From positions 186,001 through 250,000 of the forward strand of contig CAJQUW010016185.1 in NCBI GenBank assembly GCA_907163375.1: DNA of 64,000 nucleotides, given 5' to 3'. This document shows, one piece after another, positions 47,998 to 64,000 of the stretch. Position numbers and translations under genes: made by a program. Each line of letters starts with the position of its first letter. Within the stretch, counting starts at the first letter, position 1. The DNA comes from Prostheceraeus crozeri. Taxonomy: Eukaryota > Platyhelminthes > Polycladida > Euryleptidae. Under the pieces are notes generated by a model. It was not told the origin of the DNA. It searched no databases and was given only the letters and a program-made list of their open reading frames with translations.

Positions 47998-48239
47998 TTT
48001 TAGTATAGAAATCCAGATGATTGTTGATATAGATTGTGTAGTGTGCTATTTCTAGATTTCATGTATACATTTTTTGTAATATGATGTTATTGAATGAATG
48101 CTGTCTTCGTTTTCAACAATTGTTAATTGGCCTAGCACAGGTTGTAGTTCAGGAGTAGGAAAAGCGTGTGTAGTTAGCGGTATAATTTTTATACGAGTGA
48201 TTAAGATTGTAAATTAATCGGCTTATCGTCTCAAATCCA
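47998..48239. other. Downstream of the terminal exon
   Basis: AT-rich, no coding content; possible 3' UTR. No clear polyadenylation signal. Confidence 0.35.
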
Positions 48240-48600
48240 ATAGCGAATATAGAGCGACAAAGCAGGTGGGATACCGTATATGTAGCGATTAATCGGCCAA
48301 AATCCGATATCGGAAATAGAGCGATAAAACAGGTGGATACCGTATATGTAGCGATTAATCGGCCAAAATCCGATATCGTATATAGAGCGATAAAACAGGT
48401 GGGATACCGCATATGTAGCGATTAATCGGCCAAAATCCGATATCGGAAATAGAGCGATAAAACAGGTGGGATACCGCATATGTAGCGATTAATCGGCCAA
48501 AATCCGATATCGGAAATAGAGCGACAAAACAGGTGGATACCGCATATGTAGCGATTAATCGGCCAAAATCCGATATCGGAAATAGAGCGGAATATCAGGT
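48240..48600. repeat. 67-bp tandem array, five copies (block B inner part)
   Basis: Units with TGTAGCGATTAATCGGCC start near 48281, 48347, 48414, 48481 and 48547 (66-67 bp period). They contain, inverted, the CGCTCTATTTCCGATATCGG core shared with the 70-bp array at 37.3-37.6 kb. Minus-strand frames through the array are open only because of the period. Confidence 0.85.
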
Positions 48601-48717
48601 GCAATGCCGAGACGAATTCTCGGGCATCAGCAAGACATCGATTTTATGGGAAATCGACGCCGCGATGCCGAAACGAGATTTCATGCTTCGGCCCGATGAA
48701 ATTTTTACCACCGGGTA

Positions 48718-50126
48718 GTGGACGGATTTTGTCGAGTGAGGTGTCATTTGAAAGCTAAGAGTGAGACAAATTCACTGAAACAAACGGCTTGTTCCTATCT
48801 GTCTTCGTTTACATGTGAGACGCCATTTAAGATTTTAGGTCGGAGCTCACCTGAAAAAATCCTAAGTGTCAGAGTGACTTTGTATGGGAAAAATTAAAAA
48901 TTTTCCAAAGTGTGGAATTTCGACCTGGGACCTTTACCAAAGTTTGTTTCATCAAATTTCGCTGACCCCCCCCCCTTTGTTCTAACTTTGGTTCTAGTGG
49001 TCGGATTTTGTTCGTTCGAGTTGCATTGGAAAGAGGATGAAACACTGCTCGACCGCATTTTTCGTTGCGAGTCAATCGGAGCAGCCGTTCAAAAGTTAGA
49101 GCGGTTACAAGATTTTAGGTCGGAGCTCACCTGAAAAAATCCTAAGTGTCAGAGTGACTTTGTATGGGAAAAATTAAAAATTTTCCAAAGTGTGGAATTT
49201 CGACCTGGGACCTTTACCAAAGTTTGTTTCATCAAATTTCGCTGACCCCCCCCCCCTTTGTTCTAACTTTGGTTCTAGTGGTCGGATTTTGTTCGTTCGA
49301 GTTGCATTGGAAAGAGGATGAAACACTGCTCGACCGCATTTTTCGTTGCGAGTCAATCGGAGCAGCCGTTCAAAAGTTAGAGCGGTTACAAGATTTTAGG
49401 TCGGAGCTCACCTGAAAAAATCCTAAGTGTCAGAGTGAGCTCCGACCTAAAATCTTGTAACCGCTCTAACTTTTGAACGGCTGCTCCGATTGACTCGCAA
49501 CGAAAAATGCGGTCGAGCAGTGTTTCATCCTCTTTCCAATGCAACTCGAACGAACAAAATCCGTCCACTAGAACCAAAGTTAGAACAAAGGGGGGGGGGT
49601 CAGCGAAATTTGATGAAACAAACTTTGGTAAAGGTCCCAGGTCGAAATTCCACACTTTGGAAAATTTTTAATTTTTCCCATACAAAGTCACTCTGACACT
49701 TAGGATTTTTTCAGGTGAGCTCCGACCTAAAATCTTGTAACCGCTCTAACTTTTGAACGGCTGCTCCGATTGACTCGCAACGAAAAATGCGGTCGAGCAG
49801 TGTTTCATCCTCTTTCCAATGCAACTCGAACGAACAAAATCCGACCACTAGAACCAAAGTTAGAACAAAGGGGGGGGGTCAGCGAAATTTGATGAAACAA
49901 ACTTTGGTAAAGGTCCCAGGTCGAAATTCCACACTTTGGAAAATTTTTAATTTTTCCCATACAAAGTCACTCTGACACTTAGGATTTTTTCAGGTGAGCT
50001 CCGACCTAAAATCTTAAATGGCGTCTCACATGTAAACGAAGACAGATAGGAACAAGCCGTTTGTTTCAGTGAATTTGTCTCACTCTTAGCTTTCAAATGA
50101 CACCTCACTCGACAAAATCCGTCCAC
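48718..50126. repeat. 1.4-kb near-perfect palindrome of ~280-bp monomers, TA-flanked
   Basis: Bases up to 49407 mirror those from 49439 around a 31-base centre. Each arm has two ~280-bp monomers plus a partial one, with monomer starts near 48834 and 49113 on the left and near 49439 and 49718 on the right. Each contains an 8-10-base C/G run. The ends GTGGACGG...CCGTCCAC are flanked by TA (48716-48717, 50127-50128). Without the palindrome, the flanks would read CCGGGTAGAAGCC, which is the sequence (inverted) at about 37187-37199 in block A. Open frames inside are repeat artefacts. Confidence 0.9.
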
Positions 50127-50440
50127 TAGAAGCCAAGATCGAAGCAAGCTGTCCAGAGGGGGGGGGACGTCAGCGAAATTTGATGAAAAATGTTTTGGTA
50201 AAGGTCCCAGGTCAAAATTCGGAAGCTTTAAATTTTTCAAAATTTTCACCACACTGGAGCTCCCACACTTAGGAATTTTTTCACTTGTGGCATGTTACAT
50301 GGTCATGTGCTGACACACCAACTTCCCGTGGTCATATGAGAATGGTTGAGGTGTCATATGATAGAGAATGATGAGACAAATCGTTTGCAACAAACCGCAT
50401 GTCGCTACGATGAATACTTTCGGAGATAGAGCCATTTTAA
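50127..50440. repeat. Diverged monomers next to the virus-like element's first promoter
   Basis: 50127-50285 is a diverged monomer (GAAGCCAAGATCGAAGCAAG, G-run, GTCAGCGAAATTTGATG, ACACTTAGG). 50350-50440 resembles the left-arm segment beginning GAGGTGTCATTTGAAAG, now GAGGTGTCATATGATAG. The repeats therefore abut the TATA box at 50456 and may be terminal repeats of the virus-like element. Confidence 0.6.
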
Positions 50441-50455
50441 GTTTTCTTCCGAGCA

Positions 50456-50463
50456 TATATAAA
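50456..50463 (+). promoter_or_regulatory. TATA box (TATATAAA) of the acidic coiled-coil gene
   Basis: TATATAAA followed about 25-30 bases later by TCACTTCATC, a plausible start site. A donor CGAG|GTAAGC at 50504/50505 and acceptor CACTTCAG at 51097 predict a 593-nt 5' UTR intron ahead of the ATG at 51101. Confidence 0.65.
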
Positions 50464-51100
50464 CCCCCGACAACGCAAGTCTGATCACTTCATCGAAAGA
50501 CGAGGTAAGCGACGGTCGTCGCTCTGAGCTCCCGATATCGGGTTGCAAAGGACTCTATCTTTTGAAGTAGGCAAGCTATCTTCTTACTTCAAAGTTTGTG
50601 TGATAGAGTTTGATAGTGTCTTTACTACTGATAAAATTTTTTAAAAGTAGTATGAGTAGTAAAATGCGGAATTTTTTAAAAATTCTTAATTTTCAGTTTT
50701 TTCAAAGTTTTAACATGTAGACTAAGGTTTTCAAGTATGCTGAGTTCAAATCTGCTATCAGATTTGAAATGTAACTAAGTCTAAGGCAGCTTTGAGGGGT
50801 TGGATCCCAGCTACTGATCACTACCTTTGACTCGGCGTTCCTGTTACCACTTCGGGGCAGTGACAATGATGTCTTCAGCTGTAAAGAGCGGGTATCGGGG
50901 AAGATCTCTCACTTCCCTAGTGATCAGTACAAGGCCTTCGGGCTGTCGACGGGATCTAGTGCCACTCACTACACTCAAATCTATCATTCCTCACTAAGTG
51001 TAAAATCATTCTTTTCCGTTTTTATAAACTAGGAATCAATCGTTTGCTATCAAACGTTTACGGAATTATAATCATTGTTTTCCCCTTTTCACTTCAGAAA

Positions 51101-52317
51101 ATGGTTAACTACAACAATGCAAAGACGGCTTTTAAGCTTTGCGTCTGTTCAAAGATTTTTCGTAGCGATGCCTTTAAGAAGCATTCTTGTGCACATAAGC
51201 GAATGGTAGGGGCATTCGATACTTTTGTAGCAGCCATAATGCATCTCGCCTTGTCGAGACGCTACCGGAGTGGCATGCGAAGCACAGCAGCTGCAGTCAA
51301 CCAGAGCTGACTGAGGAGGCGAAGCAAAGTCTCTTCAGCTCAGAGTTGAAAGCTCTGGAGACTCAGTGTGCTATCGAGGCTATCACGTCAGCAAAGCCTC
51401 CCTCATCTTGTGCACCAGCAAAGGCTCTCTCGCCCACCCCGATTCTAGAGACTCAGTCTGCTGTCGAGTCTATCACGTCAGCAGAGGCTCCATCTTCTAG
51501 CGTGCCAGCAAAGGCTCTCTCACCCACTCCGATTGAGTCTTCTCCGAAGTCGAGTAAATCCTCCTCCTCCTCCTCTAGCGATGAGTCGGCTACAAGTAGC
51601 AGCGACAGTGAGGAAGAGGAGGAGGATAAAGGCTCGACGAAGGTTGACCTAGTCGAGAGTGTCTACCTCGATAGCGAGGTAGAGGCGGTGAGGGACGTTG
51701 ACCTCGATAGCGAGGTGCAGCCGGCTAAGTTATCAAGCAGTGGTGGGATTGCGGCTCAATGTCGCAACTTCATTATGCGCCCACCACTGGTTGATAACTA
51801 TGACAAGCTGAAGAATGAGTTGGAGGTGTGGAAGAGGGACTGTTTCTTCTATAAAGCGAGTTCCGAGAACCTCTCGCGAGTCACTCAGGAGCTCAAGAAG
51901 ACTCAAGCTAGTCTTTTTGAGAAAGAAGGAGAGCTCGATCGCGAGAGGTTCTCGCACCTCGCTAGTAAGGCTAAAGAAGAGCAGCTCCTCATCGAGAGAG
52001 AGAGTCAGGAGAAGGAGTTAAGAAAGATGAGGGAGGAGGTGGAAGGGCTGCGAAAGCAGTTGGGGAAGGTGGTGGCGACTAATCAGGAGCTGCACCAGCA
52101 AGTGATGAGTAGCAGTACTCGACGATCAAGTCGCCTCCACATTCCCCTTGACAAGAAAGGACGTGTGCCCGCAAGACCGCTCCTCTGTGAACGTGGCAGA
52201 GACGAGATGTGTTATAGCAGGGCTAAAAAAGGTATCGAATGCCTTCACTTTACAGATATCAAAGAGAAGCGCCCACCTGCTTCCGTCAACGAGCCGGAGG
52301 CGAAGCGGCAAGCTTGA
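51101..52317 (+). CDS. Acidic Ser-rich coiled-coil protein with N-terminal Cys/His motif
   Basis: ATG 51101 lies just after an acceptor (CTTCAG|AAAATG). The first part has a zinc-finger-like CVCSKIFRSDAFKKHSCAH. The frame must then change: from about 51199 the neighbouring frame reads IRYFCSSHNASRLVETL and continues to the stop at 52317. The main part has two ~30-residue repeats ending PAKALSPTPI, a Ser tract and Asp/Glu tract, repeated YLDSEVEAV/DLDSEVQP, a long predicted coiled coil (about 51800-52110), and a basic C-terminus. The frame change may be a one-base indel, or a weak 101-nt intron (51206-51306). Function unknown; the composition suggests a regulatory or scaffold role. Confidence 0.6.
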
Positions 52318-52337
52318 GTCCCATAGTCCTTGAATTA

Positions 52338-52481
52338 TCCCGAGAATGAACCATCGGCTCTCTTAAGGGCCACCTAGGGGCAAGACATGATAGAACCTCC
52401 ACGCGGTTTGCCCTGGGCAGTCTTCGGACTGGCGAATACTATCATTAAGTTGAATCTGCTATCAGTCAACTTGAACGTTGC
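52338..52481. repeat. Partial copy of the 530-bp direct repeat
   Basis: The first 144 bases of the repeat found at 52815 and 53699, from TCCCGAGAATGAACC to AACGTTGC, with a few changes. One change creates a stop in the minus-strand frame. It ends immediately upstream of the TATA box at 52497. Confidence 0.85.
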
Positions 52482-52496
52482 GTCACATTAGAGGGG

Positions 52497-52504
52497 TATA
52501 TAAA
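52497..52504 (+). promoter_or_regulatory. TATA box (TATATAAA) with truncated gene
   Basis: TATATAAA followed by CATTTCATTTCATTG, matching the region after the polymerase gene's TATA box. It leads directly into a fragment of the coiled-coil gene's 3' end, so its own gene body seems to have been deleted. Confidence 0.55.
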
Positions 52505-52524
52505 CCACTACCTCTCATTTCATT

Positions 52525-52602
52525 TCATTGATATCAAAGAGAAGCGACCACCTGCTTCAGTCAACTCTCCGGAGGCGTTAAGCCGCAAGCTTGAGTCCTA
52601 AG
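52525..52602 (+). pseudogene. Duplicate 3' end of the coiled-coil gene
   Basis: GATATCAAAGAGAAGCG(A/C)CCACCTGCTTC to AAGCTTGAGTCC repeats 52255-52321 with several changes, including a small insertion. It is only the last 20-odd codons, placed behind a separate promoter. Probably the remains of a paralogue or a tandem duplication with internal deletion. Confidence 0.7.
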
Positions 52603-52754
52603 TGAATTGCTAGAATAGAGGAGCCCTAAGACATTTTTTTAAATTTTGCTCGGAAGATGACAGCAATCTGCTGTCAATCCAACCCGGAAAATGGCGCCTA
52701 CAACTTTTTTTTTTCCATGGTACCACATACCAGTTAGTGACAGTGCTATCAGTG

Positions 52755-53377
52755 CTACCAGTCCTTTGACTCTCTAGCTCTATTGGTCGGGTGGAGATGA
52801 ACGGGTGATGTTACTCCCGAGAATGAACCATCGGCTCTCTTAAGGGCCACCATGGGGCAAGACATGATAGAACCTCCTCGCGGTTTGCCCTGGGCAGTCT
52901 TCGGACTGGCGAATACTATCATTAAGTTGAATCTGCTATCAGTCAACTTGAACGTTGCAAATGAAGTTCGGTGTAATACTTCCTTTCGACGGGCGTTCCT
53001 GTAAAGGGCGGCGGTGAAACCCGTAGCTATGTATACCGCAAGGGACATTCGGCAATGGTCAATCTTGTTAAACCTCTCTGCGTCATGTTTGCAAGTGATT
53101 GCCTCTGTCTCAACGTAGTATGCATTCGCGCCAGGGCGACATTTAGCCAACTGTCGAAGGTTGCCTAAAACTTTCCATTGCATACGTTATGAGAGCCATG
53201 AGTTCTACCTGTCTCTATCAATGAGACGAATTGATGAATGGAATGAAAGGGAGGATACTCACGCGCCACACGCAACATAACACACTTCTCTCTTCCGTAG
53301 TCTAACAAGCTCTTTACACATGGATCGCAGTCGATTGCTATCCCTGAAGCATTCTGATTCGCTGTTGAGCAATTCAT
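52755..53377 (-). CDS. Minus-strand frames in the direct repeat, possibly a spliced gene
   Basis: On the minus strand, ATG 53377 starts a 37-residue stretch rich in Cys (MNCSTANQNASGIAIDC, CDPCVKSLLDYGREKC) reaching a donor-like GTGAGT at about 53266, with acceptor-like GACAG near 53215. A second frame, 53183-52755, encodes a 142-residue basic protein (MQWKVLGNLRQLAKCRP, later FATFKLTDSRFNLMIVFASP). I could not find a splice that joins both in one frame. The second frame is also open in copy 2 but broken in the partial copy. Unrecognised; coding status uncertain. Confidence 0.3.
52815..53344. repeat. 530-bp direct repeat, copy 1
   Basis: Nearly identical, with the same length, to 53699-54228. 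The two copies flank the small gene at 53438. The high identity suggests a recent duplication or ongoing conversion. Confidence 0.92.
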
Positions 53378-53389
53378 TGTTGAAAACCC

Positions 53390-53397
53390 TATATAAG
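53390..53397 (+). promoter_or_regulatory. TATA box (TATATAAG)
   Basis: TATATAAG lies 41-48 bases upstream of the ATG at 53438, with TCATTCAA as a plausible initiator about 25 bases downstream. The core is symmetric (TATATA), so it could also serve the minus strand. Confidence 0.65.
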
Positions 53398-53437
53398 CCA
53401 GAAGATTGTAGCGCTTCTCATTCAATTTGAAGTCACG

Positions 53438-53689
53438 ATGGAAGCCACATCTGCCGACAACATTCCCGTCTTCATCGATGAAGACAACGCCATTCCCGAG
53501 TTCGTCATCCTCGACGAGTGGGATGAGGATGAGAAGAAGGGGAAGATCAAGAGGATCATTTGGACGGATGAGGTGTGGACTCCGAATACCACTCGCATCC
53601 GAAAGGTGTCAGATGCACCAGCACGGCTTAGGCGGTATAGGGTTTATGACAACCTAACCGTCATACCCCTTGACTATTCAAGCCAATAG
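53438..53689 (+). CDS. Small acidic protein, 83 residues
   Basis: ATG 53438 follows a TATATAAG box. The protein has an acidic first half (VFIDEDNAIPEFVILDEWDE), then a mixed-charge second half (RIRKVSDAPARLRRYRV) ending DYSSQ at 53689. No known domain. It occupies the unique 354-bp island between the two 530-bp repeats, so the pair looks like a cassette with repeats as borders. Function not inferable. Confidence 0.6.
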   Translation: MEATSADNIPVFIDEDNAIPEFVILDEWDEDEKKGKIKRIIWTDEVWTPNTTRIRKVSDAPARLRRYRVYDNLTVIPLDYSSQ

Positions 53690-53698
53690 TCAACCTAA

Positions 53699-54228
53699 TC
53701 CCGAGAATGAACCATCGGCTCTCTTAAGGGCCACCATGGGGCAAGACATGATAGAACCTCCTCGCGGTTTGCCCTGGGCAGTCTTCGGACTGGCGAATAC
53801 TATCATTAAGTTGAATCTGCTATCAGTCAACTTGAACGTTGCAAATGAAGTTCGGTGTAATACTTCCTTTCGACGGGCGTTCCTGTAAAGGGCGGCGGTG
53901 AAACCCGTAGCTATGTATACCGCAAGGGACATTCGGCAATGGTCAATCTTGTTAAACCTCTCTGCGTCATGTTTGCAAGTGATTGCCTCTGTCTCAACGT
54001 AGTATGCATTCGCGCCGGGGCGACATTTAGCCAACTGTCGAAGGTTGCCTAAAAGTTTCCATTGCATACGTTATGAGAGCCATGAGTTCTACCTGTCTCT
54101 ATCAATGAGACGAATTGATGAATGGAATGAAAGGGAGGACACTCACGCGCCACACGCAACATAACACACTTCTCTCTTCCATAGTCTAACAAGCTCTTTA
54201 CACATGGATCGCAGTCGATTGCTATCCC
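53699..54228. repeat. 530-bp direct repeat, copy 2
   Basis: Matches 52815-53344 over its whole length with only a handful of single-base differences. It contains the minus-strand frame 54067-53690, which is the counterpart of 53183-52755. Confidence 0.92.
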
Positions 54229-54428
54229 AAAATCATGTAAGCTATCTTAATTTTATTTAACACTATTTCATCTACCATTATCACCCATATGAAATGTTAT
54301 AAGATTTGCAAGTTAAACTAAGCGTGCTACTATTTCCAAATGAAAAAGTATACATGGTTAAATTATTCACTAAAGCCCCATTCAAGTAAGTCAGTATGAA
54401 AGCAAAGATAATACGAAATAAACATTTA
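54229..54428. other. AT-rich spacer
   Basis: No gene. AATAAA on the minus strand near 54420 is a likely polyadenylation signal for the gene at 54429-54866. Confidence 0.4.
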
Positions 54429-54866
54429 TTATGGCATGTATTTTAAAAGGTCTTCATCGTCAATATCGTCCCAGAGTCTGACTTCACATAGATCACAAAA
54501 ACAGTTGAGCTGCTTTAAACGTTCTTCTGCAGCGTCCCTCACTTTCTCAATGTACGCCCACTCCGCCACGGTTCGCGGTTGGGAGTTAGGGGTGTACCAC
54601 TCCCATATTTGATGCAAGTGCGACTTGCTGGTCATCTCCATCACCCCTTCGGCATCATATTGTAAATATTTCCACCGTATGCCTGTTAGGTCGGGCAACT
54701 CCTCTTCATCATCCTCCGATAATGATAACTTTCGTATATTGTCCAGATTGTATGTCTTCTCCACCTTCGCCTTTCTTGGTGCATTTGGTGTAACGAGCAC
54801 CTTTGCTGATGTGCATGGAGAGGAGAACTCCAATGCGGTATTTGGTGTTGTTGGAGGACTTGTCAT
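54429..54866 (-). CDS. Small protein with Thr/Pro N-terminus and acidic patches, 145 residues
   Basis: ATG at 54866. The N-terminus is Thr/Pro/Ser-rich (MTSPPTTPNTALEF), followed by a basic stretch (APRKAKVEK), an acidic stretch (SLSEDDEEELPDLTGIRW), a helical middle with EWAYIEKVRDAAEERLKQL, two Cys pairs (NCFCDLCEV) and an acidic end (DDIDDEDLLKYMP). Possible small zinc-binding site at CFCDLC. No family recognised. Transcribed divergently from the polymerase gene, with a reverse-strand CCAAT box in the shared 245-bp region. Confidence 0.65.
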   Translation of the reverse strand: MTSPPTTPNTALEFSSPCTSAKVLVTPNAPRKAKVEKTYNLDNIRKLSLSEDDEEELPDLTGIRWKYLQYDAEGVMEMTSKSHLHQIWEWYTPNSQPRTVAEWAYIEKVRDAAEERLKQLNCFCDLCEVRLWDDIDDEDLLKYMP

Positions 54867-54979
54867 GTTGTCTTTGAAATGCTGACTTTGAATAATGATA
54901 ACTTTAACATTTTTCTAATTCTAAAGTATAAACAAGCAGCCAATCAGAATGAACATCCAATGAATGAAGAGAATGAAAG

Positions 54980-54987
54980 TATATAAG
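54980..54987 (+). promoter_or_regulatory. TATA box (TATATAAG) of the polymerase gene
   Basis: TATATAAG lies about 130 bases upstream of the ATG at 55113, followed by CATTCATGTCATTTCATTT, similar to the sequence after the box at 52497. Confidence 0.7.
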
Positions 54988-55112
54988 CAAAGTGACATTC
55001 ATGTCATTTCATTTAATCTGTGAATCATACAAGTGACGAATTCTCTACGAATTCTGCTATTATTTGACATATTAATTGAGTGTCTCTATCTTATTGACAT
55101 CATTTCATTAAA

Positions 55113-58100
55113 ATGGTAAGTTAAAGATTTCCTCTCTCATCTCCCTCAAACGTGTGACTAATAGCATCTTCCTCAATTTCAGGCATCAACTTCATCACCA
55201 ACGCCCTCTCTTCTCGAGGAAAGTTTAGAGTTATTGAGTCAAGGTAGGTTGTAACACTACACTGAGGCTTGAACAGAGATGATAGAATGATTTCTCTTTC
55301 AGGTGATGCGAGTTCCAGCTCAGAACTGTCGCGATATGGCAACGAGTGGGAATGTGCTGACTGTGGGCACATCTTCACGAGGAAATGGGATCTCACCCGA
55401 CACATCAAGCGAGGTGTTTGTCGACCTAAGCCGGCATCAATCTCCGAAGGTAGGGATGATTCTGTTAACGATGTCTCCTTTTCTTGCGATTTATGCATTC
55501 AGTCTTTCGAGACACGTTTTGAACTATCTTCGCACAGACTTCAACATACACACACGAACGATACCTACACCAACGGTACCTCCTCTATCCGACTCACTGA
55601 GGTGTCCATAAATAATTTAGTGAGGAACTACCAGATGGACTCCTCAGAAACCATTGCTAACTTTGAGGAATGGTTTCATCAAAATTCATCATTGATAGAA
55701 GCGCTCTTCAACAATTTAGACAATTTTAGGATGAAGGCGCTCATCTATCTTAAAATAAAATATGTAAAAATCGACCACCATACTGGACAAATAATAGAGA
55801 GGTTAGAGTTTCACATACCCTCCTCTCCTGCAACCGAGGTTGTAGACTATGAGTCTTGGATAAATTTTCACATCCAAGGATTAAAATTAAATATTGATAA
55901 ATTTAACGAGCGCGATAGCGGTCTCATTTTTGACGGCATTGAGTCCGCCTTATTTAAAATCAGTTTATTAGGAAATCATAGTGGTCGAGGCTCCTTTAAA
56001 CTTCCAAAAAATTTAAAAAACAAAACAGCAGTCATCAATGTCGATTGCGAATCGCAATGTTTTAAATATGCTGTCCTCTCCATTCTCCACTATAATGACA
56101 TCAATGCGAATCGAAATCGTACATATAGCTATAGGCAGTGGGAGAATGAATTAAACTTCGATGACTGTAATAGTGACGATATGAAAATTAAAGATATAGA
56201 AAAATTTGAAAAATTGAACAACATTAAAATAGTTCTCCATGTTTGGGAAAAGGGATTGAAGGGTGTGCGCTACAACTCGCGTTCGAGTTGTTATGACCAT
56301 GTTGTCAACCTTTTATTAGTAAGACAGGATGATAGTGAGGAATGGCACTACTGCGGCATTCCCAAAATCTCTCGCTTATACCACCACTTAAGAAATTCTA
56401 CCTCATCAGAGATTTATTACTGTGACAGATGCATTCGGAACTTTAGGAGTAAAAACAAATTTGAAACTCATTATGAGTGGTGTAAGCGAGGTAAACTGCA
56501 AATGGAACGCATGCCCAAAGATAAGGAGTTTTCATATAGAGAGAATGGCGATGAACTAAGTCCTCTTCGTGTCATCTATGCTGACATCGAATGTTATATC
56601 GATGATAACATCCATCGACCAGCAGCCATTTCCTGCTATGAAGTATGGCATGACCATTTCCAAAATAGAAAAAATAAAATGCACGTCTGGCAAGGTGAGG
56701 ATTGTATTTACCAATTCCTACAATTCCTCGAACAGGCTGTAAAATTTCAACAAAAGTATGATGGTGAACTCTATCGCAGATCATTGCATATGACAGCAGA
56801 TGATCAAGCAAAATTTGATAGTTGCAACGTTTGCCCCAAATGTAGGAAAACATTTGACGATGATAAGATTAAGAAAGTGCGCGACCATGACCACATCACT
56901 GGTAAATTTAGAAACGCACTCTGTTCAAAATGTAATTTTTCGCTGAGGATGAAGCGGCGTACATTACCCGTCATTTTCCATAATTTCAAGGGCTACGACA
57001 GCCATATGATAATAAAAGGAGGTTTAGGTCAAATGAAAGAGTGGAAGCTTGATGTAATAGCACAAACGAGAGAGAAGTTTATGGCCATGACAGCAAAAGT
57101 GCCTGTCGATAAAACTAAAGAAAATAAGACGGTCTATTTTGATATAAAATTTTTAGATTCCTACCAATTTATGACTGCATCACTGGCCTCTCTCGTGCAA
57201 AATCTAAAGTCTCTTCCACTAACACAAAATCTTAAGAAACAATATCCAAATCTAACCGATGAAGTCATCACACGGAAAGGAGTCTTTCCATATGCATATT
57301 TTGATGCAATTAGTAAACTCGGCGAGACTTCTCTTCCGCCCATAGATAAATTTAAAAATGATTTGACCGGCGCAGAATGTAAGACCGAAGATTATGATCA
57401 TGCACAAGATGCATGGATAAAATTTGACTGCCATACATTTGGTGAATATATGATTGCCTACCTTAAGTTAGATGTATTTTTGCTGGCTGATGTATTTCAG
57501 GAGTTTCGACGAGTGGCATTAGAAGAAGATAAGTTAGATCCCGTCCACTTTGTCAGTCTGCCAGCCATGTCATTTAAGTCTGCTTTTAAAATGACTGGTG
57601 AGACCATTCATCTCTTACAAGATCCAGAGATGTATAATTTATTTGAGCGAGGAATTCGCGGTGGTCTCACATTTGTAAATAAACATAGGTTAAAATCAAA
57701 AATAGTAGGCAATGACCAGACTCATCTGAAGTATTATGACCAAAATAATTTGTATGGTAGTTCATTATCCAAACCGCTACCTCACTCTGAGTTTAGCTGG
57801 TTAGATGATAGTGAAATTCAACATTTCTCCAACCCTTCCAACATACTAGCAATTCCAGATGAAGGTGATTGGGGATATTATTTTGAGATAGATCTAATCT
57901 ATCCAAATAATATTAAACATAAAACCGTAGATTTTCCACTCGCACCCGAATCAGGTGAAGTGAGTAAAGATATGTTTTCCGACTTTATGAAACAATTTCA
58001 TAAAGATTTAGAATCATGCGGTCAACCCGACTATAAGCCTTGCCGCAAACTTTTACTCACCCAGTATGATAAAGAAAACTATCTAGTCCACTTTAGCATC

Positions 58101-59087
58101 TTAAAATTTTATTTAGAAATGGGCATGATTTTAAAAAGAGTTCACCGCATTATTAAATTTAGACAGAAAGCCTTCCTCAAACCCTACATAGATAGTAACA
58201 GTCAGAAACGTGCACTAGCCCAAAATAATTTTGAAAAAGATTTTTATAAATATAAGAACAACAGTCTATTTGGTAAGACGATGGAGGATGTTAGAAAGCG
58301 CGTAAACTACAAACTAGTTAATGATGATCAAAAGTATCACAAATTGACCTCATCACCTCTATTCATCGATAGAGACATAATCGATGAGGATCTTGTAGGT
58401 ATTAAAATGATAAAATCTGAAGTTGAGTTGTGCAAACCCATCTATATTGGTCAAGCTGTTCTAGATTACTCCAAGCTTGAAATGTATCAACTCTTCTATA
58501 AAATACTAAAACCGTGTCCTCTCGTAAAAGAGGTTCGTTTGTTGGGTGGTGACACAGATAGTTTCTTTTTAGGTATTACCACTCAAAAAGATTTAAATTT
58601 TAATGAAGTAGGAAAATCTTTAGAAAGATATTTTGATACATCAAATTATCCTGCTAATCATCCACTATACTCCATCAAAAATAAGGCAAAACTTGGCTGC
58701 TTTAAGGATGAGACAGCAGGGAAGGAGATAGCTGAAATGATTCTCCTCCGCCCTAAAATGTATTCTATGAAATTAAAGGATAGTGATGATAGCATTAAGC
58801 GCGCTAAAGGCATATCAAGATCATTGGTCTCTAACATGAAACATAAGAATTTCAGGAAAGCCTATAGAAATAAAAATATAACGTTTGTCAATATGACAAT
58901 CTTAAAATCTAAGTCGCATGAGATCAAAACTCATACTTTTAGGAAACGGGCGCTTTCAGCATGGGAGGATAAGAGGTGCTGGCTAGAACACAACATATCT
59001 CTTCCACATGGACATCCTGACACAAACATACCACCACCCAAAAGAATTAAACTCACACTACCACATTCAGGAGACGTCTTAGCATAA
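55113..59087 (+). CDS. Protein-primed family-B DNA polymerase with zinc fingers, three exons
   Basis: Exon 1 is only the ATG (55113-55115), then GTAAGT...TTTCAG; exon 2 is 55183-55243; exon 3 is 55303-59087. All junctions are GT-AG and phases agree, so the frame is continuous (about 1,280 residues). N-terminus: two C2H2 fingers (CADCGHIFTRKWDLTRHIKR, and CDLCIQSFETRFELSSHR), a region with CFKYAVLSILHY seen in related animal polymerases, and a third finger CDRCIRNF. Then ExoI YADIECYID, an HNH/endonuclease-VII-like CPKC...RDHDHITG...CSKCN, ExoII FHNFKGYDSH, ExoIII YLKLDVFLLADVF, motif A YDQNNLYGSSLS, motif B NNSLFGKTMED and motif C GGDTDSFFLG. All catalytic acids are present. A C-terminal PPPKRIKL may be a nuclear signal. 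Likely replicates the element from terminal-protein-primed ends. Intact and probably recent. Confidence 0.9.
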
Positions 59088-59292
59088 TCATCCTTAACTT
59101 AGTATTTTGATGTTGACTTCTGTAGATAAACATTGTTGTTTTATGTATCGCATGAGATTGTTTTTTCCTTGTGAATATGTGTCCACATCTGTACATTCCC
59201 CATGTGATGACTTTTCCACTGAAAGACATTTTTCCTATCCCTGTATATTTCCACCCTTCACGAAGTAAAAAGACTTTTTGTATATAACAATG

Positions 59293-59377
59293 TTTATTGA
59301 AGTGCGCTCATGTATATATTTTCAGTGGATGTTGTATAAAGTCTATTCCTTCACATTCATGTACATATTTCAATAAA
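59293..59377. terminator. Overlapping polyadenylation signals of convergent genes
   Basis: AATAAA on the plus strand (59372-59377) serves the polymerase gene; TTTATT at 59293-59298 is AATAAA on the minus strand for the gene ending at 59393. The 3' ends of the two transcripts therefore overlap. The stretch 59280-59395 contains a diverged duplicated phrase (ATGTTGTATAAAG). Confidence 0.65.
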
Positions 59378-59392
59378 TGTTGTATAAAGACT

Positions 59393-60943
59393 TCACTTTG
59401 TTTTCCGAAACACTAACGTTATGAGGGATTTAGTATCTTTCACATGGATGCACTCTTGTAAACCATTGGTAATTTTGATAGCAATAGAGGGTATAGTTTG
59501 TTTGACGACGGGATGATAGAAAATAGATTCAAACATCTTCTCGACTATTCCATATGAAGCGTCTTTATCATGAATGAAATCACGTAAAATGTATTCTTTT
59601 TTCTCACCAACAGAAATAGGTAGAATCAAATCACTTTGAATGTAAAGGTGCTGTTCATGTTTATCAAGTGTCATTGGTGTTTCTATACCAATCGTATGCG
59701 CAGCAGCAAACACAGTTTGTAGCATTGAAAAACCAAAGAGTTTTTTCAAATTTTTACTCAATTGACATTGAATGTCATCACCCAGTCTCAGAACAACGCG
59801 TTGATTTTCAATTGAAAACGAAATGTGGTGTGTCTTTACATCATATTTACTTTTCATCACATGCTTCAACTTCTGTTGTATATAAGGATTTACTACATGA
59901 ATGAAGCTTTCAACTGTATGATATAGACGCGGCATTATATTGATAGCAACTTTAGATTCTTCATAAGACTGGTAAATTTTCTTGATGCGATCGCCATAGA
60001 TGTCCACCCACCATTCATCATTAACTGAATCAGCTTTAGTGTGATATTCATGAGAAGCATACACCACACCGCTTCCAATAATAGGTGTATAATGTCTTAC
60101 AAAATGACGCAAGGTTGGAGAGAAATAAACTGTAAGTTTGTCATTATATTTCTGAATAACCAACTTATTTTTGTCCGCCATAATTTTCTCTCCATACTTC
60201 TTACCCACAGTCTCATTCCATCGTTTTACTAACTCAATAAGTGATAAAGGTTGAACACCACGCTTTTTCAAAATGATGCGTTCTTCGCATTCTACAACAT
60301 CTTCATCAAATATTTTAAATCTATAATGAAATTTGTTGATTCGATTTGAATAAACTTTTCTAACATTTGCAGTAGCAATTGACGTTAGATGTAGTCCATG
60401 ACCAAAACCGAGATGCGGATAGAATTCACTATCCAACCTCAGCGTAAGACCTTTAGTAAAAGAATGAAAGCGGAGGAACTGTCTCCCACTCCAATGATAG
60501 ATAGTAAACTCATAAGCTTTCTGATTTTTATTCTTCATGATGGAAGTATTACCACTGTTGAATGCCTTAATAATTTTCTCATTCCCAAATGGCTCATAAG
60601 AATCTGATTTTATCTGAATCCATTCATAGTTCCACTTTCCATCTGATGTTAAATTGTATGGGAACTGAAATGCATTATTCATCGTTATTCCATCATGGGT
60701 GCGAGGAGTCAATATCATTTCTTCCAAATCATTCACATTCTGAATATTGCTATCATAGCAAATACTAGAAACGCCAACCTCCCATTCACCTTCTAAATGC
60801 AGTGGGCGATTTAATTCTACTCGATAGTCTGATGGTTTATTTTTGGGAAATTTATTCATAGAAGCATTACTGGGCAAGTAGATTAGAAACGAGTCCTTAT
60901 TTTCACTTTCCATATTATTCACATTGGAAAAATATATTAGCAT
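59393..60943 (-). CDS. WEVGV-family protein 1, possibly structural (516 residues)
   Basis: ATG at 60943 (or at 60913, ten codons on). Residues near the N-terminus read FLIYLPSNASMNKFPKNKPS, then LEGEWEVGVSSI. The same arrangement starts the neighbour downstream, so the two are paralogues. The rest is beta-rich in appearance, with GVQPLSLIELVKRWNE, RHFVRHYTPIIG and a middle region near IMPRLYHTVESFI; the counterpart also has RHFV-like and MPRI-like positions. No enzyme motif. Similar uncharacterised proteins, as I recall, occur in invertebrate genomes beside pPolB genes. Tandem large proteins next to a capsid-maturation protease suggest capsid components, but this is inference. Confidence 0.65.
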   Translation of the reverse strand: MLIYFSNVNNMESENKDSFLIYLPSNASMNKFPKNKPSDYRVELNRPLHLEGEWEVGVSSICYDSNIQNVNDLEEMILTPRTHDGITMNNAFQFPYNLTSDGKWNYEWIQIKSDSYEPFGNEKIIKAFNSGNTSIMKNKNQKAYEFTIYHWSGRQFLRFHSFTKGLTLRLDSEFYPHLGFGHGLHLTSIATANVRKVYSNRINKFHYRFKIFDEDVVECEERIILKKRGVQPLSLIELVKRWNETVGKKYGEKIMADKNKLVIQKYNDKLTVYFSPTLRHFVRHYTPIIGSGVVYASHEYHTKADSVNDEWWVDIYGDRIKKIYQSYEESKVAINIMPRLYHTVESFIHVVNPYIQQKLKHVMKSKYDVKTHHISFSIENQRVVLRLGDDIQCQLSKNLKKLFGFSMLQTVFAAAHTIGIETPMTLDKHEQHLYIQSDLILPISVGEKKEYILRDFIHDKDASYGIVEKMFESIFYHPVVKQTIPSIAIKITNGLQECIHVKDTKSLITLVFRKTK

Positions 60944-60952
60944 ACGTTTGCA

Positions 60953-62350
60953 TTAACTCTTCATTCGGAAATGGAGTGTGATACTTGTCACAGCATCTTT
61001 ATGAAAAGGAATCAACGCACCAGCATCGTCATAAATGGCAATATCAATTTGTGGGATGTAGTTTGATTTCAGCTTTGTATAATGCACTTTCTTGAAAGTA
61101 TGCTCAGATAAAATACTGCAGCTCTTTGGCTGGTATGGTATCATTGCTAGCAATGGAGCTTCAACATCTCCCACACGTACATCTTCACCAATATTGGAAT
61201 ATATCTGAAAATAGTTAATACGACGCGATAGCGACATGTCTGCGCTAGCTTTGGTTACAGTACCACTTTTAAAGATATTTTGGTCAAAACCCAAAATGTC
61301 CATTAGAGTTTTATCCATAATTAGTTCAATACCTTTTCCACTTATAGTGAGAGACAAAGTACCTTCTTTTTCAGAAAATGAAATATGTTGGTCATTAATC
61401 ACTTCATTTAAATAATCTACAACCAATTTAACTGAAGTAATGATGCGAGGCATCAGCACTCTTGTTTCATGTAAGATACCACCGAAAGGCTCTACACACT
61501 TTCTGTATAAAGATACGCTCCATTCTGTATCAAATTGATTTGACCTTTCACATGGTAAATGTTGCATATTAAATTTTCCATGAACAGCTGCAGAATGATG
61601 TCGCAAGAACTGATGAAAATCTTTTGAACAAATTAATACTAGATCATCATCATTTAATTTACTTATTGCAATATGATTAGATGATTTAATATAAGTCAAT
61701 GTTGCCACTTGTTTACCATCAACTCGAAGGAGATAATTAAATTTCTTCACTAATGTTTCAGGAGTCATGTTTGTCTTTCTTGGCTTAATCACAATCTTCT
61801 TCACCAACGTCTTCTCATTTTTTGGAATAAGATCTACATAATAAGCTTCCTCTCGATATATTAACTGTTTATGAGCACTTATGTGGTAATTAACGTTAAA
61901 ATTATCATAGCTTGTCAAGGCGTTAGCGAGGTAACCTAAATCATTTCTTAAACTTGGACTTAAACCAACAATCCAATCTTTCTCAACTACATGATGTATA
62001 TAAGTATAATCATCATTGTGTGGAGTAAATTGGGCAATATGTTTACACGCTTTATTCAAGAAATCATATATAAACTTTTTACATGATAAGAGATCTTTCT
62101 TTGGCCACTGTGGAATGTATACTCGGCAGCCCTTTTCACATTGGTAAGCAGCTGTACGTCTCATATTAATAGTCATCACCTCATGATCAAAAGTATAGAC
62201 ACAGTTGCTATAAACAAGTTGAGTGACACCCACTTCCCAATTCCCATTTAGCTGTTGTGCATGATCAATGGGAGTAGAAAAGAGTGCGGCTCGATTACTA
62301 GTAAATCTCTTTGTAGCCGCATTGCTAAGCAAAATATGATAAAACGACAT
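60953..62350 (-). CDS. WEVGV-family protein 2, possibly structural (465 residues)
   Basis: The first ATG is at 62350; the longer open frame upstream begins with TTG and is unlikely. Start: YHILLSNAATKRFTSNRAAL, then LNGNWEVGVTQLVYS, matching the paralogue. Further shared landmarks are a TPETLVKKFNYLLRVDGK block, CSKDFHQFLRHHSAAVHG, and MPRIITSVKLVVDYL near the middle. It ends nine bases before the start of the paralogue at 60943, so the two probably share a transcript or lie head to tail. Beta-rich, no signal peptide or membrane helix. Function unknown. Confidence 0.65.
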   Translation of the reverse strand: MSFYHILLSNAATKRFTSNRAALFSTPIDHAQQLNGNWEVGVTQLVYSNCVYTFDHEVMTINMRRTAAYQCEKGCRVYIPQWPKKDLLSCKKFIYDFLNKACKHIAQFTPHNDDYTYIHHVVEKDWIVGLSPSLRNDLGYLANALTSYDNFNVNYHISAHKQLIYREEAYYVDLIPKNEKTLVKKIVIKPRKTNMTPETLVKKFNYLLRVDGKQVATLTYIKSSNHIAISKLNDDDLVLICSKDFHQFLRHHSAAVHGKFNMQHLPCERSNQFDTEWSVSLYRKCVEPFGGILHETRVLMPRIITSVKLVVDYLNEVINDQHISFSEKEGTLSLTISGKGIELIMDKTLMDILGFDQNIFKSGTVTKASADMSLSRRINYFQIYSNIGEDVRVGDVEAPLLAMIPYQPKSCSILSEHTFKKVHYTKLKSNYIPQIDIAIYDDAGALIPFHKDAVTSITLHFRMKS

Positions 62351-62385
62351 TTTTATATTGCTAATCTGCAACTTTGCATAACATC
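62351..62385. promoter_or_regulatory. 35-bp divergent promoter with TTTGCAT/ATGCAAA
   Basis: Only 35 bases separate the divergent starts at 62350 (minus) and 62386 (plus). ATGCAAA on the minus strand is at 62379-62373. The same word occurs 4 bases before the ATG at 60943 (60953-60947) and 29 bases before the ATG at 62765 (62730-62736). A shared late-type promoter word is inferred. Confidence 0.4.
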
Positions 62386-62742
62386 ATGAAGACTTGGATT
62401 TTGGACTCTCTACAATATATCAGAGTTGATCGTGATGGAAACGTACATTTCAAAAATTCTCATGGTCATACATCAAGAGGAATTACATTAACATGGCGAC
62501 AATTTGTCAACCTCAATGATATCATGAGGGATTTGGAATATTTTGAAACATTAAGATTCATCTCCCTGGGTGATCAAGTTTGGCTTCAACATTACAGAAA
62601 TGAAATTCAAATCTACCATTCTCATTCCGCAAACTGTTTCTCATTTCGCAAATACAATTGGGAGAAGTATAGAAGATACATACATCGCTCCATCATGACA
62701 TTTATTCGTCGTGAGTTCATCGCCCTACTATGCAAATCTTAA
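62386..62742 (+). CDS. PC4-like small protein 1 (118 residues)
   Basis: The first ATG is at 62386; the frame upstream begins with TTG. WILDSLQYIRVDRDGNVHFK, then ITLTWRQFVNLNDIMRDLEYF, resembles the strand-strand-helix arrangement of the single-stranded-DNA-binding PC4 (Sub1/p15) fold, where a W/F-rich L-x-x-x-Q-W/F-x-x-L helix follows the beta hairpins. The second half (VWLQHYRNEIQIYHSH, then YNWEKYRRYIHRSI) is unlike PC4. A clear paralogue follows. PC4-like proteins bind ssDNA or aid transcription; role here is inferred. No catalytic residues. Confidence 0.55.
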   Translation: MKTWILDSLQYIRVDRDGNVHFKNSHGHTSRGITLTWRQFVNLNDIMRDLEYFETLRFISLGDQVWLQHYRNEIQIYHSHSANCFSFRKYNWEKYRRYIHRSIMTFIRREFIALLCKS

Positions 62743-62764
62743 TCAGACATGACTATCACGCACC

Positions 62765-63415
62765 ATGAGTTGGAAATTAGATTCCCTACAACGTATTGAA
62801 ACGGATCATGATCGAAACGTCTATTTCAAAGATTCAACTGGAAATGTGAGAAGAGAGTTTGCTTTATCTTATCGCCATTTTCAATCTCTACATCATATCA
62901 TGAAGGATTTGAAATACTTCTATATGAAAAGACATTCACGTATTGGAAATCGCATCTGGTTGCGCGTCAACAATCGGCGAATTCAACTCTATCATTCCCA
63001 ACTTCATACTAACTTCACATTTCATCAAGGTAGTTGGGAAAAGTATAAAAGGAAGGTACATCGCTCAATTTACTCATTCTTTCATCATGAAGCGCCATCG
63101 CTACACCATCGTCAACATTCTCCGTCGCTTCAGACTCTACACCAAAATCGATCTCACAACATTACACCAACAGCTTCCAAACAGCAAGTATTACCCGGGT
63201 CGTCCTCAAATGTTAGTGGTGAAGATGAACAATTCACGGAATCTTCAACTCTTCCCAAATGGGACTGTACAGATTCTCGGCGCCCTTTCTCATTCATCGG
63301 CGCAGTCAATGCGCTTAGAGCTACAAAGACTACTACGTCGGATATGGAAGAGGGAGAGGTGTGTGATGTCGAATCTGACTGTGGACAATATGGTGATCTC
63401 TACTCAATTGAGTGA
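62765..63415 (+). CDS. PC4-like small protein 2, with overlapping C-terminal extension
   Basis: ATG at 62765, 22 bases after the preceding stop. WKLDSLQRIETDHDRNVYFK, FALSYRHFQSLHHIMKDLKYF and GSWEKYKRKVHRSIYSFF align with every landmark of protein 1, so the two are tandem duplicates. Homology ends near 63085. The frame then stays open to 63415 through the TBP-like gene in another frame; that tail (Ser/Thr/His-rich) is likely a shadow, or a true overlap after loss of a stop. The real protein may be about 108 residues. Confidence 0.5.
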   Translation: MSWKLDSLQRIETDHDRNVYFKDSTGNVRREFALSYRHFQSLHHIMKDLKYFYMKRHSRIGNRIWLRVNNRRIQLYHSQLHTNFTFHQGSWEKYKRKVHRSIYSFFHHEAPSLHHRQHSPSLQTLHQNRSHNITPTASKQQVLPGSSSNVSGEDEQFTESSTLPKWDCTDSRRPFSFIGAVNALRATKTTTSDMEEGEVCDVESDCGQYGDLYSIE

Positions 63416-63631
63416 CAGTCTATCATTTTTGAAGATTCGTACCAGCAGTTACAGTTTGTGTTATGAACCCGAACTTTTTCTGCAGCTCTCATTAGTTGTT
63501 GGTTACCTGTGCATGTGGCAATCTTTCATAATAGTAAAGTGATCATTACTGGACTAAAATCTCATGTACAAGCAAATATGATCCTAGACTATCTCATTGA
63601 GTATGTACGTACCCAGCGGATTGTAAAATAA
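63087..63631 (+). CDS. TATA-binding-protein-like gene, two repeats, frame break near 63478
   Basis: ATG at 63087 overlaps the preceding frame. The first repeat has IVNILRRF, a YYPGRPQMLVVKM segment, and LQLFPNGTVQILGA, matching TBP's strand-turn-strand with a G-K/T-V at the turn. The second has LTVDNMVIS, YEPELF at about 63463-63478, then in the next frame AALIS..., VAIFHNSKVIITGLK, and a final helix ending at TAA 63631. The order, spacing and YEPELF plus VIITG motifs are those of the TBP saddle. The intercalating Phe positions of both repeats look retained. The frame shifts by one at a run of five T (63475-63479): indel, sequencing error, or slippage. Likely a promoter-binding factor of the element. 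Confidence 0.7.
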
Positions 63632-63662
63632 AAAACAATTTTTCCAACATGATGTTTTTATT
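63627..63662. terminator. Convergent polyadenylation signals overlapping both stop codons
   Basis: AATAAA at 63627-63632 overlaps the plus-strand stop (63629-63631). On the minus strand, AATAAA (63662-63657) overlaps the protease stop (63658-63660). Such tight packing is typical of compact viral genomes. Confidence 0.7.
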
Positions 63663-64000
63663 TCAAATCATGATAGAACTTACAAATCATTTTTTCATTA
63701 GAGGATGGATTACATGAAAAGTTTTGAATAACAGATGCAAATCGAGATACATGTAAACGTCTTAAGATGAAGTACAGTACAAAAGCACCACACGTTGATG
63801 AAAGTGGATGTTGTAGTATGCGTTCATTTCGCTGATATTGACGCGTATGTTTTCTCAACCACTGCTGTGTTGGTATATTTGGAGGTTGAGCAAGAGAGTC
63901 AAATAGTTCACCACGTCGGTCTTCTCCAATAAAGATCGCTTTCCAATGCTCACCGCCTAAATTCTGCGAATGAGTGTTTAGTACAATAAAGATGGGATAG
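63658..64000 (-). CDS. Adenovirus-type cysteine protease (adenain-like), partial
   Basis: Open on the minus strand from the window edge to TAA at 63658 (at least 113 codons; N-terminus outside). Motifs: GEHWKAIFIG with the catalytic His (63946-63948), ELFDS with an acid 16 residues later (63898-63900), and LQHPLSSTCGAFVLYFI with the nucleophile Cys (63790-63792) and a Gln seven residues before it. Adenain uses His, Glu/Asp, Gln and Cys in this order, with the Gln-to-Cys spacing of seven. In Polintons and adintoviruses this protease (PRO) processes capsid proteins. All visible catalytic residues are present. Confidence 0.85.
   Translation of the reverse strand, partial: YPIFIVLNTHSQNLGGEHWKAIFIGEDRRGELFDSLAQPPNIPTQQWLRKHTRQYQRNERILQHPLSSTCGAFVLYFILRRLHVSRFASVIQNFSCNPSSNEKMICKFYHDLK

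What the first reader, a model, noticed from the sequence alone, without database searches (positions are those of the whole stretch)
50285..64000. Virus-like element combining pPolB and adenain-type protease with its own TBP-like and PC4-like factors
Seen: family-B polymerase motifs, a His-Asp-Gln-Cys protease signature at the edge, a two-repeat TBP-like frame, paired PC4-like frames, and a compact two-strand layout. Established: pPolB plus adenain-like protease characterise Polintons/adintoviruses and adenoviruses. Inference: TBP-like and PC4-like genes form a self-supplied transcription module not, to my knowledge, standard in Polintons. This looks like a distinct lineage.
Basis: partly seen in the sequence, partly recalled or inferred. 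Interest (0 to 1): 0.9.

Follow-up and report, generated by a model that had tools for sequence, protein, structure and literature searches.

The report
Polinton with its own TATA-binding protein
This is a virus-like mobile element (a Polinton) in an animal genome that carries its own version of the cell's TATA-binding protein overlapped with a single-stranded-DNA-binding-type protein, which suggests that it brings its own gene-switch factor instead of relying on the host's.

Summary
The window holds most of a Polinton (Maverick) that runs past the window edge to window-equivalent 72,825; its left terminus is truncated at 48,716. Found: family-B polymerase, two penton paralogues, a C48/C5-type protease (marginal score) and, beyond the window, an rve integrase with chromodomain. 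A near-identical copy has AG...CT ends and a 6-bp target duplication.

The TBP is real (Pfam E 2.5e-13; family profile against solved TBPs E 3.6e-23), but its second repeat is frame-broken in this copy. The "PC4-like" pair fold as two-repeat PC4/Whirly/PUR-superfamily proteins, closest to Pur-alpha.

The PUR-TBP pair recurs in three element lineages of this genome (21 of 23 loci examined), with out-of-frame overlap; TBP dN/dS between lineages is 0.17-0.43. One lineage-B copy, complete by its termini, keeps polymerase, PUR and TBP, with no capsid or integrase gene detected.

The TBPs keep the inferred TFIIB-contact glutamates but have a rewritten N-lobe. Best reading: a self-supplied promoter-recognition factor working through host TFIIB/Pol II. 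New variant of a known kind; mechanism inferred.

The parts
48716..50283 (.). Left array of ~280-bp repeats, palindromic here (48716-49438 inverted to the right array, 49430-50283 direct to it); the outermost ~350 bp of the terminal repeat, present at the right end, are missing
50284..55286 (.). Region between array and polymerase, GC up to 0.49; frames 51346-52317(+) and 54429-54866(-), function not assigned
55287..59087 (+). Family-B DNA polymerase (N-terminal C2H2 fingers, internal endonuclease VII-like motif)
   Evidence: homologous to lineage-B polymerase pieces that match PF03175 below its curated cut-off
59393..60910 (-). Penton-like capsid protein 1 (505 aa)
60953..62350 (-). Penton-like protein 2, paralogue of the first (23% identity); not folded itself
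   Evidence: alignment A1
62386..62742 (+). PUR/PC4-superfamily protein 1 (118 aa)
62765..63415 (+). PUR/PC4-superfamily protein 2 with C-terminal extension that overlaps TBP out of frame from 63087
   Evidence: overlap tested on other copies
63087..63631 (+). TBP-like gene; in frame to 63542, the rest of repeat 2 continues in another frame (interrupted in this copy)
63658..64000 (-). C48/C5-type cysteine protease, C-terminal 113 of 153 aa; rest beyond the window
60947..60953 (-). ATGCAAA, 43 nt upstream of the penton 1 start
62373..62379 (-). ATGCAAA, 29 nt upstream of the penton 2 start
62730..62736 (+). ATGCAAA, 35 nt upstream of the PUR2 start
63044..63052 (+). TATAAAAGG 43 nt upstream of the TBP start (inside PUR2 codons)

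Best explanation
It is a recently amplified Polinton whose lineage carries a transcription module: a two-repeat TBP and one or two PUR/PC4-superfamily proteins. Proposed mechanism: host TBP and Pol II express the TBP gene early from its TATAAAAGG box. The element TBP then binds element promoters and recruits host TFIIB and Pol II through its conserved C-lobe. Its rewritten N-lobe changes DNA preference and/or removes host regulation. The PUR-type proteins bind or open single-stranded DNA at promoters or replication forks. Shown: gene content, predicted folds, conservation, dN/dS below 1 between lineages, overlap of the two genes. Inferred: every step of the mechanism, including that ATGCAAA is the element's core-promoter motif.
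For: TBP identity. PUR hit beside TBP in 21 of 23 element loci from three lineages (strong in lineage A, E only about 1e-4 to 1e-7 in B and C). Out-of-frame overlap of 101-112 codons, synonymous shuffles P <= 0.002 in 9 of 11 copies tested: 5 of 5 A, 3 of 3 B, 1 of 3 C. TBP dN/dS 0.17-0.43 between lineages. The C-lobe pair E.E is E in 26 of 26 and E in 25 of 26 (many rows are near-identical copies); PMC7221094 (passages) says such a glutamate pair binds TFIIB and varies in viral TBPs, whose genomes mostly hold their own TFIIB-like protein. The residue aligned with the first N-lobe intercalating Phe is Pro in 23 of 23, while the other three Phe columns stay Phe (24/24, 26/26, 26/26; column roles recalled). 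No TFIIB family hit among the element frames scanned with Pfam. ATGCAAA lies upstream of 6 of 15 gene starts, 5 of them pentons, pVI-like, PX-like and ATPase-like genes (2 of 2000 random placements reach this). TATAAA upstream of TBP in 21 of 23 start rows. Polymerase, PUR and TBP kept in a lineage-B copy where no capsid gene was found.
Against: No expression, binding or start-site data. ATGCAAA was not found upstream of the lineage C penton, protease and TBP starts or the lineage B TBP and one o136 start sampled, is not enriched in total count, and contains the octamer core recalled as a host POU-factor site. Fifteen starts were tested; the MCP-like and o204 genes were left out for lack of a clear start. 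The TBP TATA box lies in PUR codons and may be kept for coding. Protease, integrase, polymerase and several small genes lack ATGCAAA. In lineage C only 1 of 3 copies shows the long overlap continuous with PUR. A fold match to Pur-alpha shows no function, and the model rests on six sequences. The window copy's own TBP is broken.
Confidence: 0.6

Rival explanations
1. The TBP and PUR proteins serve replication rather than transcription: TBP marks or bends the terminal repeats or origins, and PUR-type proteins act as the single-strand-binding protein for the polymerase.
For: Module kept with the polymerase in a lineage-B copy without detected capsid genes; Pur-alpha binds ssDNA (PMC4764581, abstract start in search listing).
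Against: The inferred TFIIB-contact glutamates are kept, which replication would not need; known TBPs act in transcription.
Confidence: 0.2
2. The TBP acts on the host: it competes for TFIIB/Pol II or targets host promoters to redirect host transcription.
For: Same conserved TFIIB surface; an environmental relative (P0002) is only 35-37% identical to segments of the host TBP exons.
Against: Overlap with PUR and recurrence in three lineages fit an element-internal role as well; no data on host targets.
Confidence: 0.12
3. TBP and PUR are passenger genes captured by chance and now decaying.
For: The window's TBP is interrupted; 9 of 23 loci lack a single-frame TBP covering at least 165 profile positions.
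Against: dN/dS 0.17-0.43 between lineages, overlap, environmental homologues with both repeats.
Confidence: 0.05

Closest known systems
Polintons / Mavericks (Polintoviricetes)
   Same: Family-B polymerase, rve integrase with chromodomain, C48-type protease, penton, AG...CT ends and 6-bp target duplication
   Different: Adds an overlapping PUR-TBP module and duplicated pentons; one complete lineage-B copy has no detected capsid or integrase gene
Adintoviruses / meldviruses (PMC11071296, passages)
   Same: Polymerase and integrase, adenovirus-type virion genes, elaborate penton inserts; duplicate pentons are reported there
   Different: The words TATA, TBP and PC4 do not occur in that paper's main text; structural hits to adintovirus proteins are present but low in TM-score
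TBPs of large DNA viruses (PMC7221094, PMC11410667, passages)
   Same: Virus-encoded TBP-fold factor
   Different: Those are large dsDNA viruses; PMC7221094 says almost all that have a TBP-like sequence also have a TFIIB-like protein (none identified in poxviruses) and that the TFIIB-contact positions vary. Here the element is small, the pair is conserved and no TFIIB hit was found
Herpesvirus ORF24 TBP mimic (PMC12529657, PMC7498053, search listing)
   Same: Works-like comparison: a viral TBP-type factor that uses host Pol II for its own promoters
   Different: Described there as a mimic; here there is sequence homology to TBP over both repeats
Pur-alpha / PC4 / MRP (PC4-Whirly-PUR superfamily)
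   Different: No Pfam hit to these families; C-terminal extension overprinted on TBP

Membership tests
Polinton/Maverick | Family-B DNA polymerase | tested here: met
   Window frame has no PF03175 hit itself, but lineage-B pieces homologous to it (best E 2.3e-125) match PF03175 at E 1.6e-4 and 0.0043, both under the curated cut-off. Motifs A, B, C read by eye.
Polinton/Maverick | Protein-primed replication | not testable with these tools
   No biochemical data; no polymerase tree built
Polinton/Maverick | rve integrase (chromodomain) | tested here: met
   L009:2866-4086(-): rve E 9.6e-11, Chromo E 6.5e-7, both over cut-off
Polinton/Maverick | Adenain/Ulp1-type protease | tested here: met
   Peptidase_C48 E 4.4e-4 (20.6 bits, cut-off 20.7), C5 E 0.066; full 153 aa C48 E 0.001; PDB best hit ASFV S273R E 0.0074. 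All marginal.
Polinton/Maverick | Penton (single jelly-roll minor capsid protein) | tested here: met
Polinton/Maverick | Double jelly-roll major capsid protein | tested here: inconclusive
   L009:1119-2240(-) resembles Polinton MCPs from memory only; no Pfam or PDB sequence hit; not folded
Polinton/Maverick | A32/FtsK-type packaging ATPase | tested here: inconclusive
   Pox_A32 E 0.0056, under cut-off; PDB only RFC subunit at E 0.12
Polinton/Maverick | Terminal inverted repeats 5'-AG...CT-3' with 6-bp target duplication | tested here: met
   Copy on C3640: AGTAGTAAG...CTTACTACT flanked by TATGTC; lineage-B copy on C6670: AGTAGTAACC...GGTTACTACT flanked by ATCATA, 968-bp TIR at 96.6%. Window copy: right end present, left end truncated, no duplication shown.
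TATA-binding protein | Two TBP repeats with homology over both | tested here: met
   Family profile aligned over 173 positions to an archaeal TBP, E 3.6e-23; two stretches in P0002, P0008, P0012. Window copy itself: repeat 1 plus part of repeat 2 in frame.
TATA-binding protein | DNA binding and TFIIB recruitment | not testable with these tools
   Only residue conservation
PC4 (PF02229, number recalled) | Pfam PC4 domain | tested here: not met
PUR/PC4/Whirly fold | Two beta4-alpha repeats | tested here: met
Adintovirus | Adenovirus-class hexon and polymerase tree position | not tested
   No tree built; MCP not folded

The most novel reading that the evidence does not exclude
A small mobile DNA virus lineage runs an orthogonal promoter system. 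Its TBP has lost one of four intercalating phenylalanines and reads an altered core element (ATGCAAA) in lineage A, while keeping host TFIIB. A capsid-less sister lineage (16.3 kb, same AGTAGTAA termini, 6-bp target duplication, no detected integrase) survives as a satellite that keeps only polymerase, PUR-TBP and a few small genes, mobilised in trans.
Probability: 0.25. Interest if true: 0.88.

Novelty: new variant of a known kind. Interest (0 to 1): 0.76.

Why it matters
Virus-encoded TBPs were reported in large dsDNA viruses: three families, then four more, according to PMC11410667 (passages). A TBP in a ~24-kb Polinton, with no RNA polymerase or TFIIB family found among the frames scanned, suggests that a small element can own promoter recognition. 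That makes it testable how such elements time their genes with host Pol II, and it offers a natural TBP with a rewritten N-lobe. The out-of-frame overlap ties two nucleic-acid-binding genes together. The lineage without detected capsid genes asks whether Polintons have satellites.

Tried and rejected
Led nowhere: five protein or alignment scans and one pattern scan of viral contigs gave no relatives; tblastn of the polymerase against phages gave no match; PHROGs and NCBIfam added only the endonuclease VII motif and archaeal TBPs above chance; PDB sequence search gave nothing for penton or MCP and only zinc-finger or chance hits for the polymerase. Copy counts for lineage B did not complete.

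Rejected: PC4 sensu stricto; recent capture of the host TBP gene (35-37% identity between an environmental relative and host exon segments; the host exons were identified by eye); the ~500-aa frames as unknown. An rve frame in a second lineage-B copy (L051) carries an Integrase_H2C2 domain and was read as an inserted retroelement, by inference only; if it belongs to the element, lineage B has an integrase.
Full report
What was checked. The window is C13422:186001-250000 of a 2.05-Gb genome in 14,165 contigs. The genome has an exon-split TBP gene on C9306 that reads as animal-type (my reading of the sequence). Elsewhere the window holds frames of ordinary transposable elements (ten frames of 150 aa or more scanned).

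Beyond the window (L009, one 10-kb piece): the complete 153-aa protease frame, a 373-aa frame that I recall as resembling Polinton major capsid proteins (no tool support), a 141-aa basic protein (called pVI-like by position and look only), an rve integrase with chromodomain (E 9.6e-11 and 6.5e-7), an A32-like ATPase (weak, E 0.0056) and a protein X-like frame (Adeno_PX E 0.0024, under cut-off). In this copy the capsid-like frame lacks an intact start region.

Ends. Arrays of ~280-bp repeats flank the element. The right array is similar, in part weakly, to 4 of 10 right-side pieces fetched from other loci (L033, L034, L036, L038). Pieces from near-identical copies define the termini. The copy on C3640 begins AGTAGTAAG, ends CTTACTACT and is flanked by TATGTC on both sides; by its coordinates it is about 24.3 kb long. 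The window copy has the same right terminus but lacks about 350 bp at the left. A lineage-B copy on C6670 has 968-bp inverted repeats at 96.6% identity, AGTAGTAACC...GGTTACTACT ends and an ATCATA duplication, spanning about 16.3 kb. AG...CT and 6 bp are, from recall, the Polinton signature.

TBP. Pfam E 2.5e-13. The 12 homologues found all carry PF00352. The family profile aligns over both repeats to solved TBPs, best E 3.6e-23. In the window the frame breaks inside repeat 2; intact copies exist. Own-genome search gave 150 scored PF00352 matches out of 10,982 first-look candidates, including host TBP exons. A 711-bp probe over the PUR genes gave 40 scored of 615 candidates, all 40 listed at 100% (rounded) identity. 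So at least 40 near-identical copies exist, which I read as a recent burst.

Lineages. I examined 23 element loci: 5 delivered by the search (L004-L008) and 18 that I chose from the listed rows (L011-L028). By neighbours, and for 14 of them TBP identity, they are 10 lineage A (window-like), 9 lineage B, 3 lineage C, and L011 apart. PUR hits lie beside TBP in 21 of 23 (not L011 or L015); in B and C they are weak (about 1e-4 to 1e-7). Protease and MCP-like hits lie beside TBP in 9 of 10 A, 3 of 3 C and L011, and in 0 of 9 B. TBP identity is 38-43% between A and the others and 50-55% between B and C; dN/dS over between-lineage pairs is 0.17-0.43, with dS above 1, so approximate. Within-lineage ratios are noisy (0.14 to 3.78, one undefined) because few changes separate the copies.

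Overlap. The PUR2 frame runs 108 codons into TBP in lineage A, 112 in B and 101 in C. In 2000 synonymous recodings of TBP, at least as long an open frame arose with P 0 to 0.002 for L018, L012, L025, L014, L021 (A), L020, L024, L019 (B) and L005 (C). L007 (C) is open for 46 codons only (P 0.017). For L004 (C) the frame continuous with the upstream frame closes after 15 codons (P 0.06); its other frame is open for 101 codons and was not tested. Lineage C therefore rests on one copy.

Residues. With the host exons and HMMER alignments as guide, the first N-lobe intercalating Phe column is Pro in 23 of 23 sequences; the other three Phe columns are Phe in 24/24, 26/26 and 26/26; the two Asn columns are Asn in 22/22 and 26/26. 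The C-lobe E.E pair is E in 26/26 and E in 25/26 with one D (window row excluded; the column roles are recalled, and eight rows are near-identical lineage-A copies). I equate this pair with C.L3.2/C.L3.4 of PMC7221094 from its spacing, an inference. That paper (passages) says these contact TFIIB, that viral TBPs vary there, and that almost all viruses with a TBP-like sequence had a TFIIB-like protein. The N-lobe basic cluster named there was not mapped here.

Promoters. ATGCAAA lies 29-46 nt upstream of 6 of 15 gene starts: penton 1, penton 2, PUR2, pVI-like, ATPase-like, PX-like. MCP-like and o204 were not among the 15. The best 7-mer reached 6 genes in 2 of 2000 random placements; the best 6-mer and 8-mer tests give P 0.0025 and 0.0085. 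Total ATGCAAA counts are not enriched: 3 against 2.84 and 5 against 2.98 expected. The lineage C starts (penton, protease, TBP) and lineage B starts (TBP, one o136) sampled lack it. TATAAA precedes TBP in 21 of 23 start rows (counted by eye), but lies within PUR codons.

Lineage B. In the C6670 copy, complete by its termini though with a polymerase broken into several frames, only polymerase, TBP, PUR and homologues of three small genes (o136, o176, o204) were found; no hit to integrase, protease, MCP-like, ATPase-like or penton queries at E 0.01. Pieces of two further copies likewise show no penton, protease or MCP-like hit. One contains an rve frame with an H2C2 domain, read as a retroelement insertion. 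Absence could also reflect divergence or deletion.

Literature. Searches (open-licence PMC only; of these 62, 121 and 122 listed 25 of 38, 15 of 1,657 and 12 of 152 papers) showed no report of a TBP in a Polinton in the listings and passages I saw. I opened passages of PMC12220804, PMC10675990, PMC11071296, PMC11071308, PMC7221094, PMC11410667, PMC11464507 and PMC12085832; the other listed papers were not opened. [quoted passage not shown] PMC11464507 and PMC12085832 (passages) list TBPs of large viruses. Absence outside this library cannot be claimed.

Verdict. The element is an ordinary Polinton in its backbone with an unusual, recurrent and overlapping PUR-TBP module. The module is well supported; its mechanism is inferred.

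Noticed in passing
L009:6206-6616 and window 55287-59087: A 136-aa accessory protein is homologous to a stretch of the N-terminal part of lineage-B polymerase frames (E 3e-8 and 6.7e-9), suggesting duplication of a polymerase-associated domain.
   Followed up: partly
G000:C3829:151570-151938: Two further PF00352 matches over the cut-off, one with an in-frame stop, which may be a host TBP-related gene or remnant.
   Followed up: no
window 52335-53995: Three copies of a 300-bp repeat (two identical, 884 bp apart; one 63%) in the GC-richer stretch between array and polymerase.
   Followed up: no
window 48233-48589: 67-bp tandem array just outside the left end of the element.
   Followed up: no
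window 1557-42649: Tc/mariner-type, Pao and DDE_1/psq (pogo-type, by recall) transposon frames and a reverse transcriptase.
   Followed up: no
L011: A further divergent copy with penton, TBP, protease and MCP-like genes but no PUR hit; perhaps a fourth lineage.
   Followed up: no
L009:5880-6209: A 109-aa frame with a cysteine-rich, RING-like pattern, by eye.
   Followed up: no
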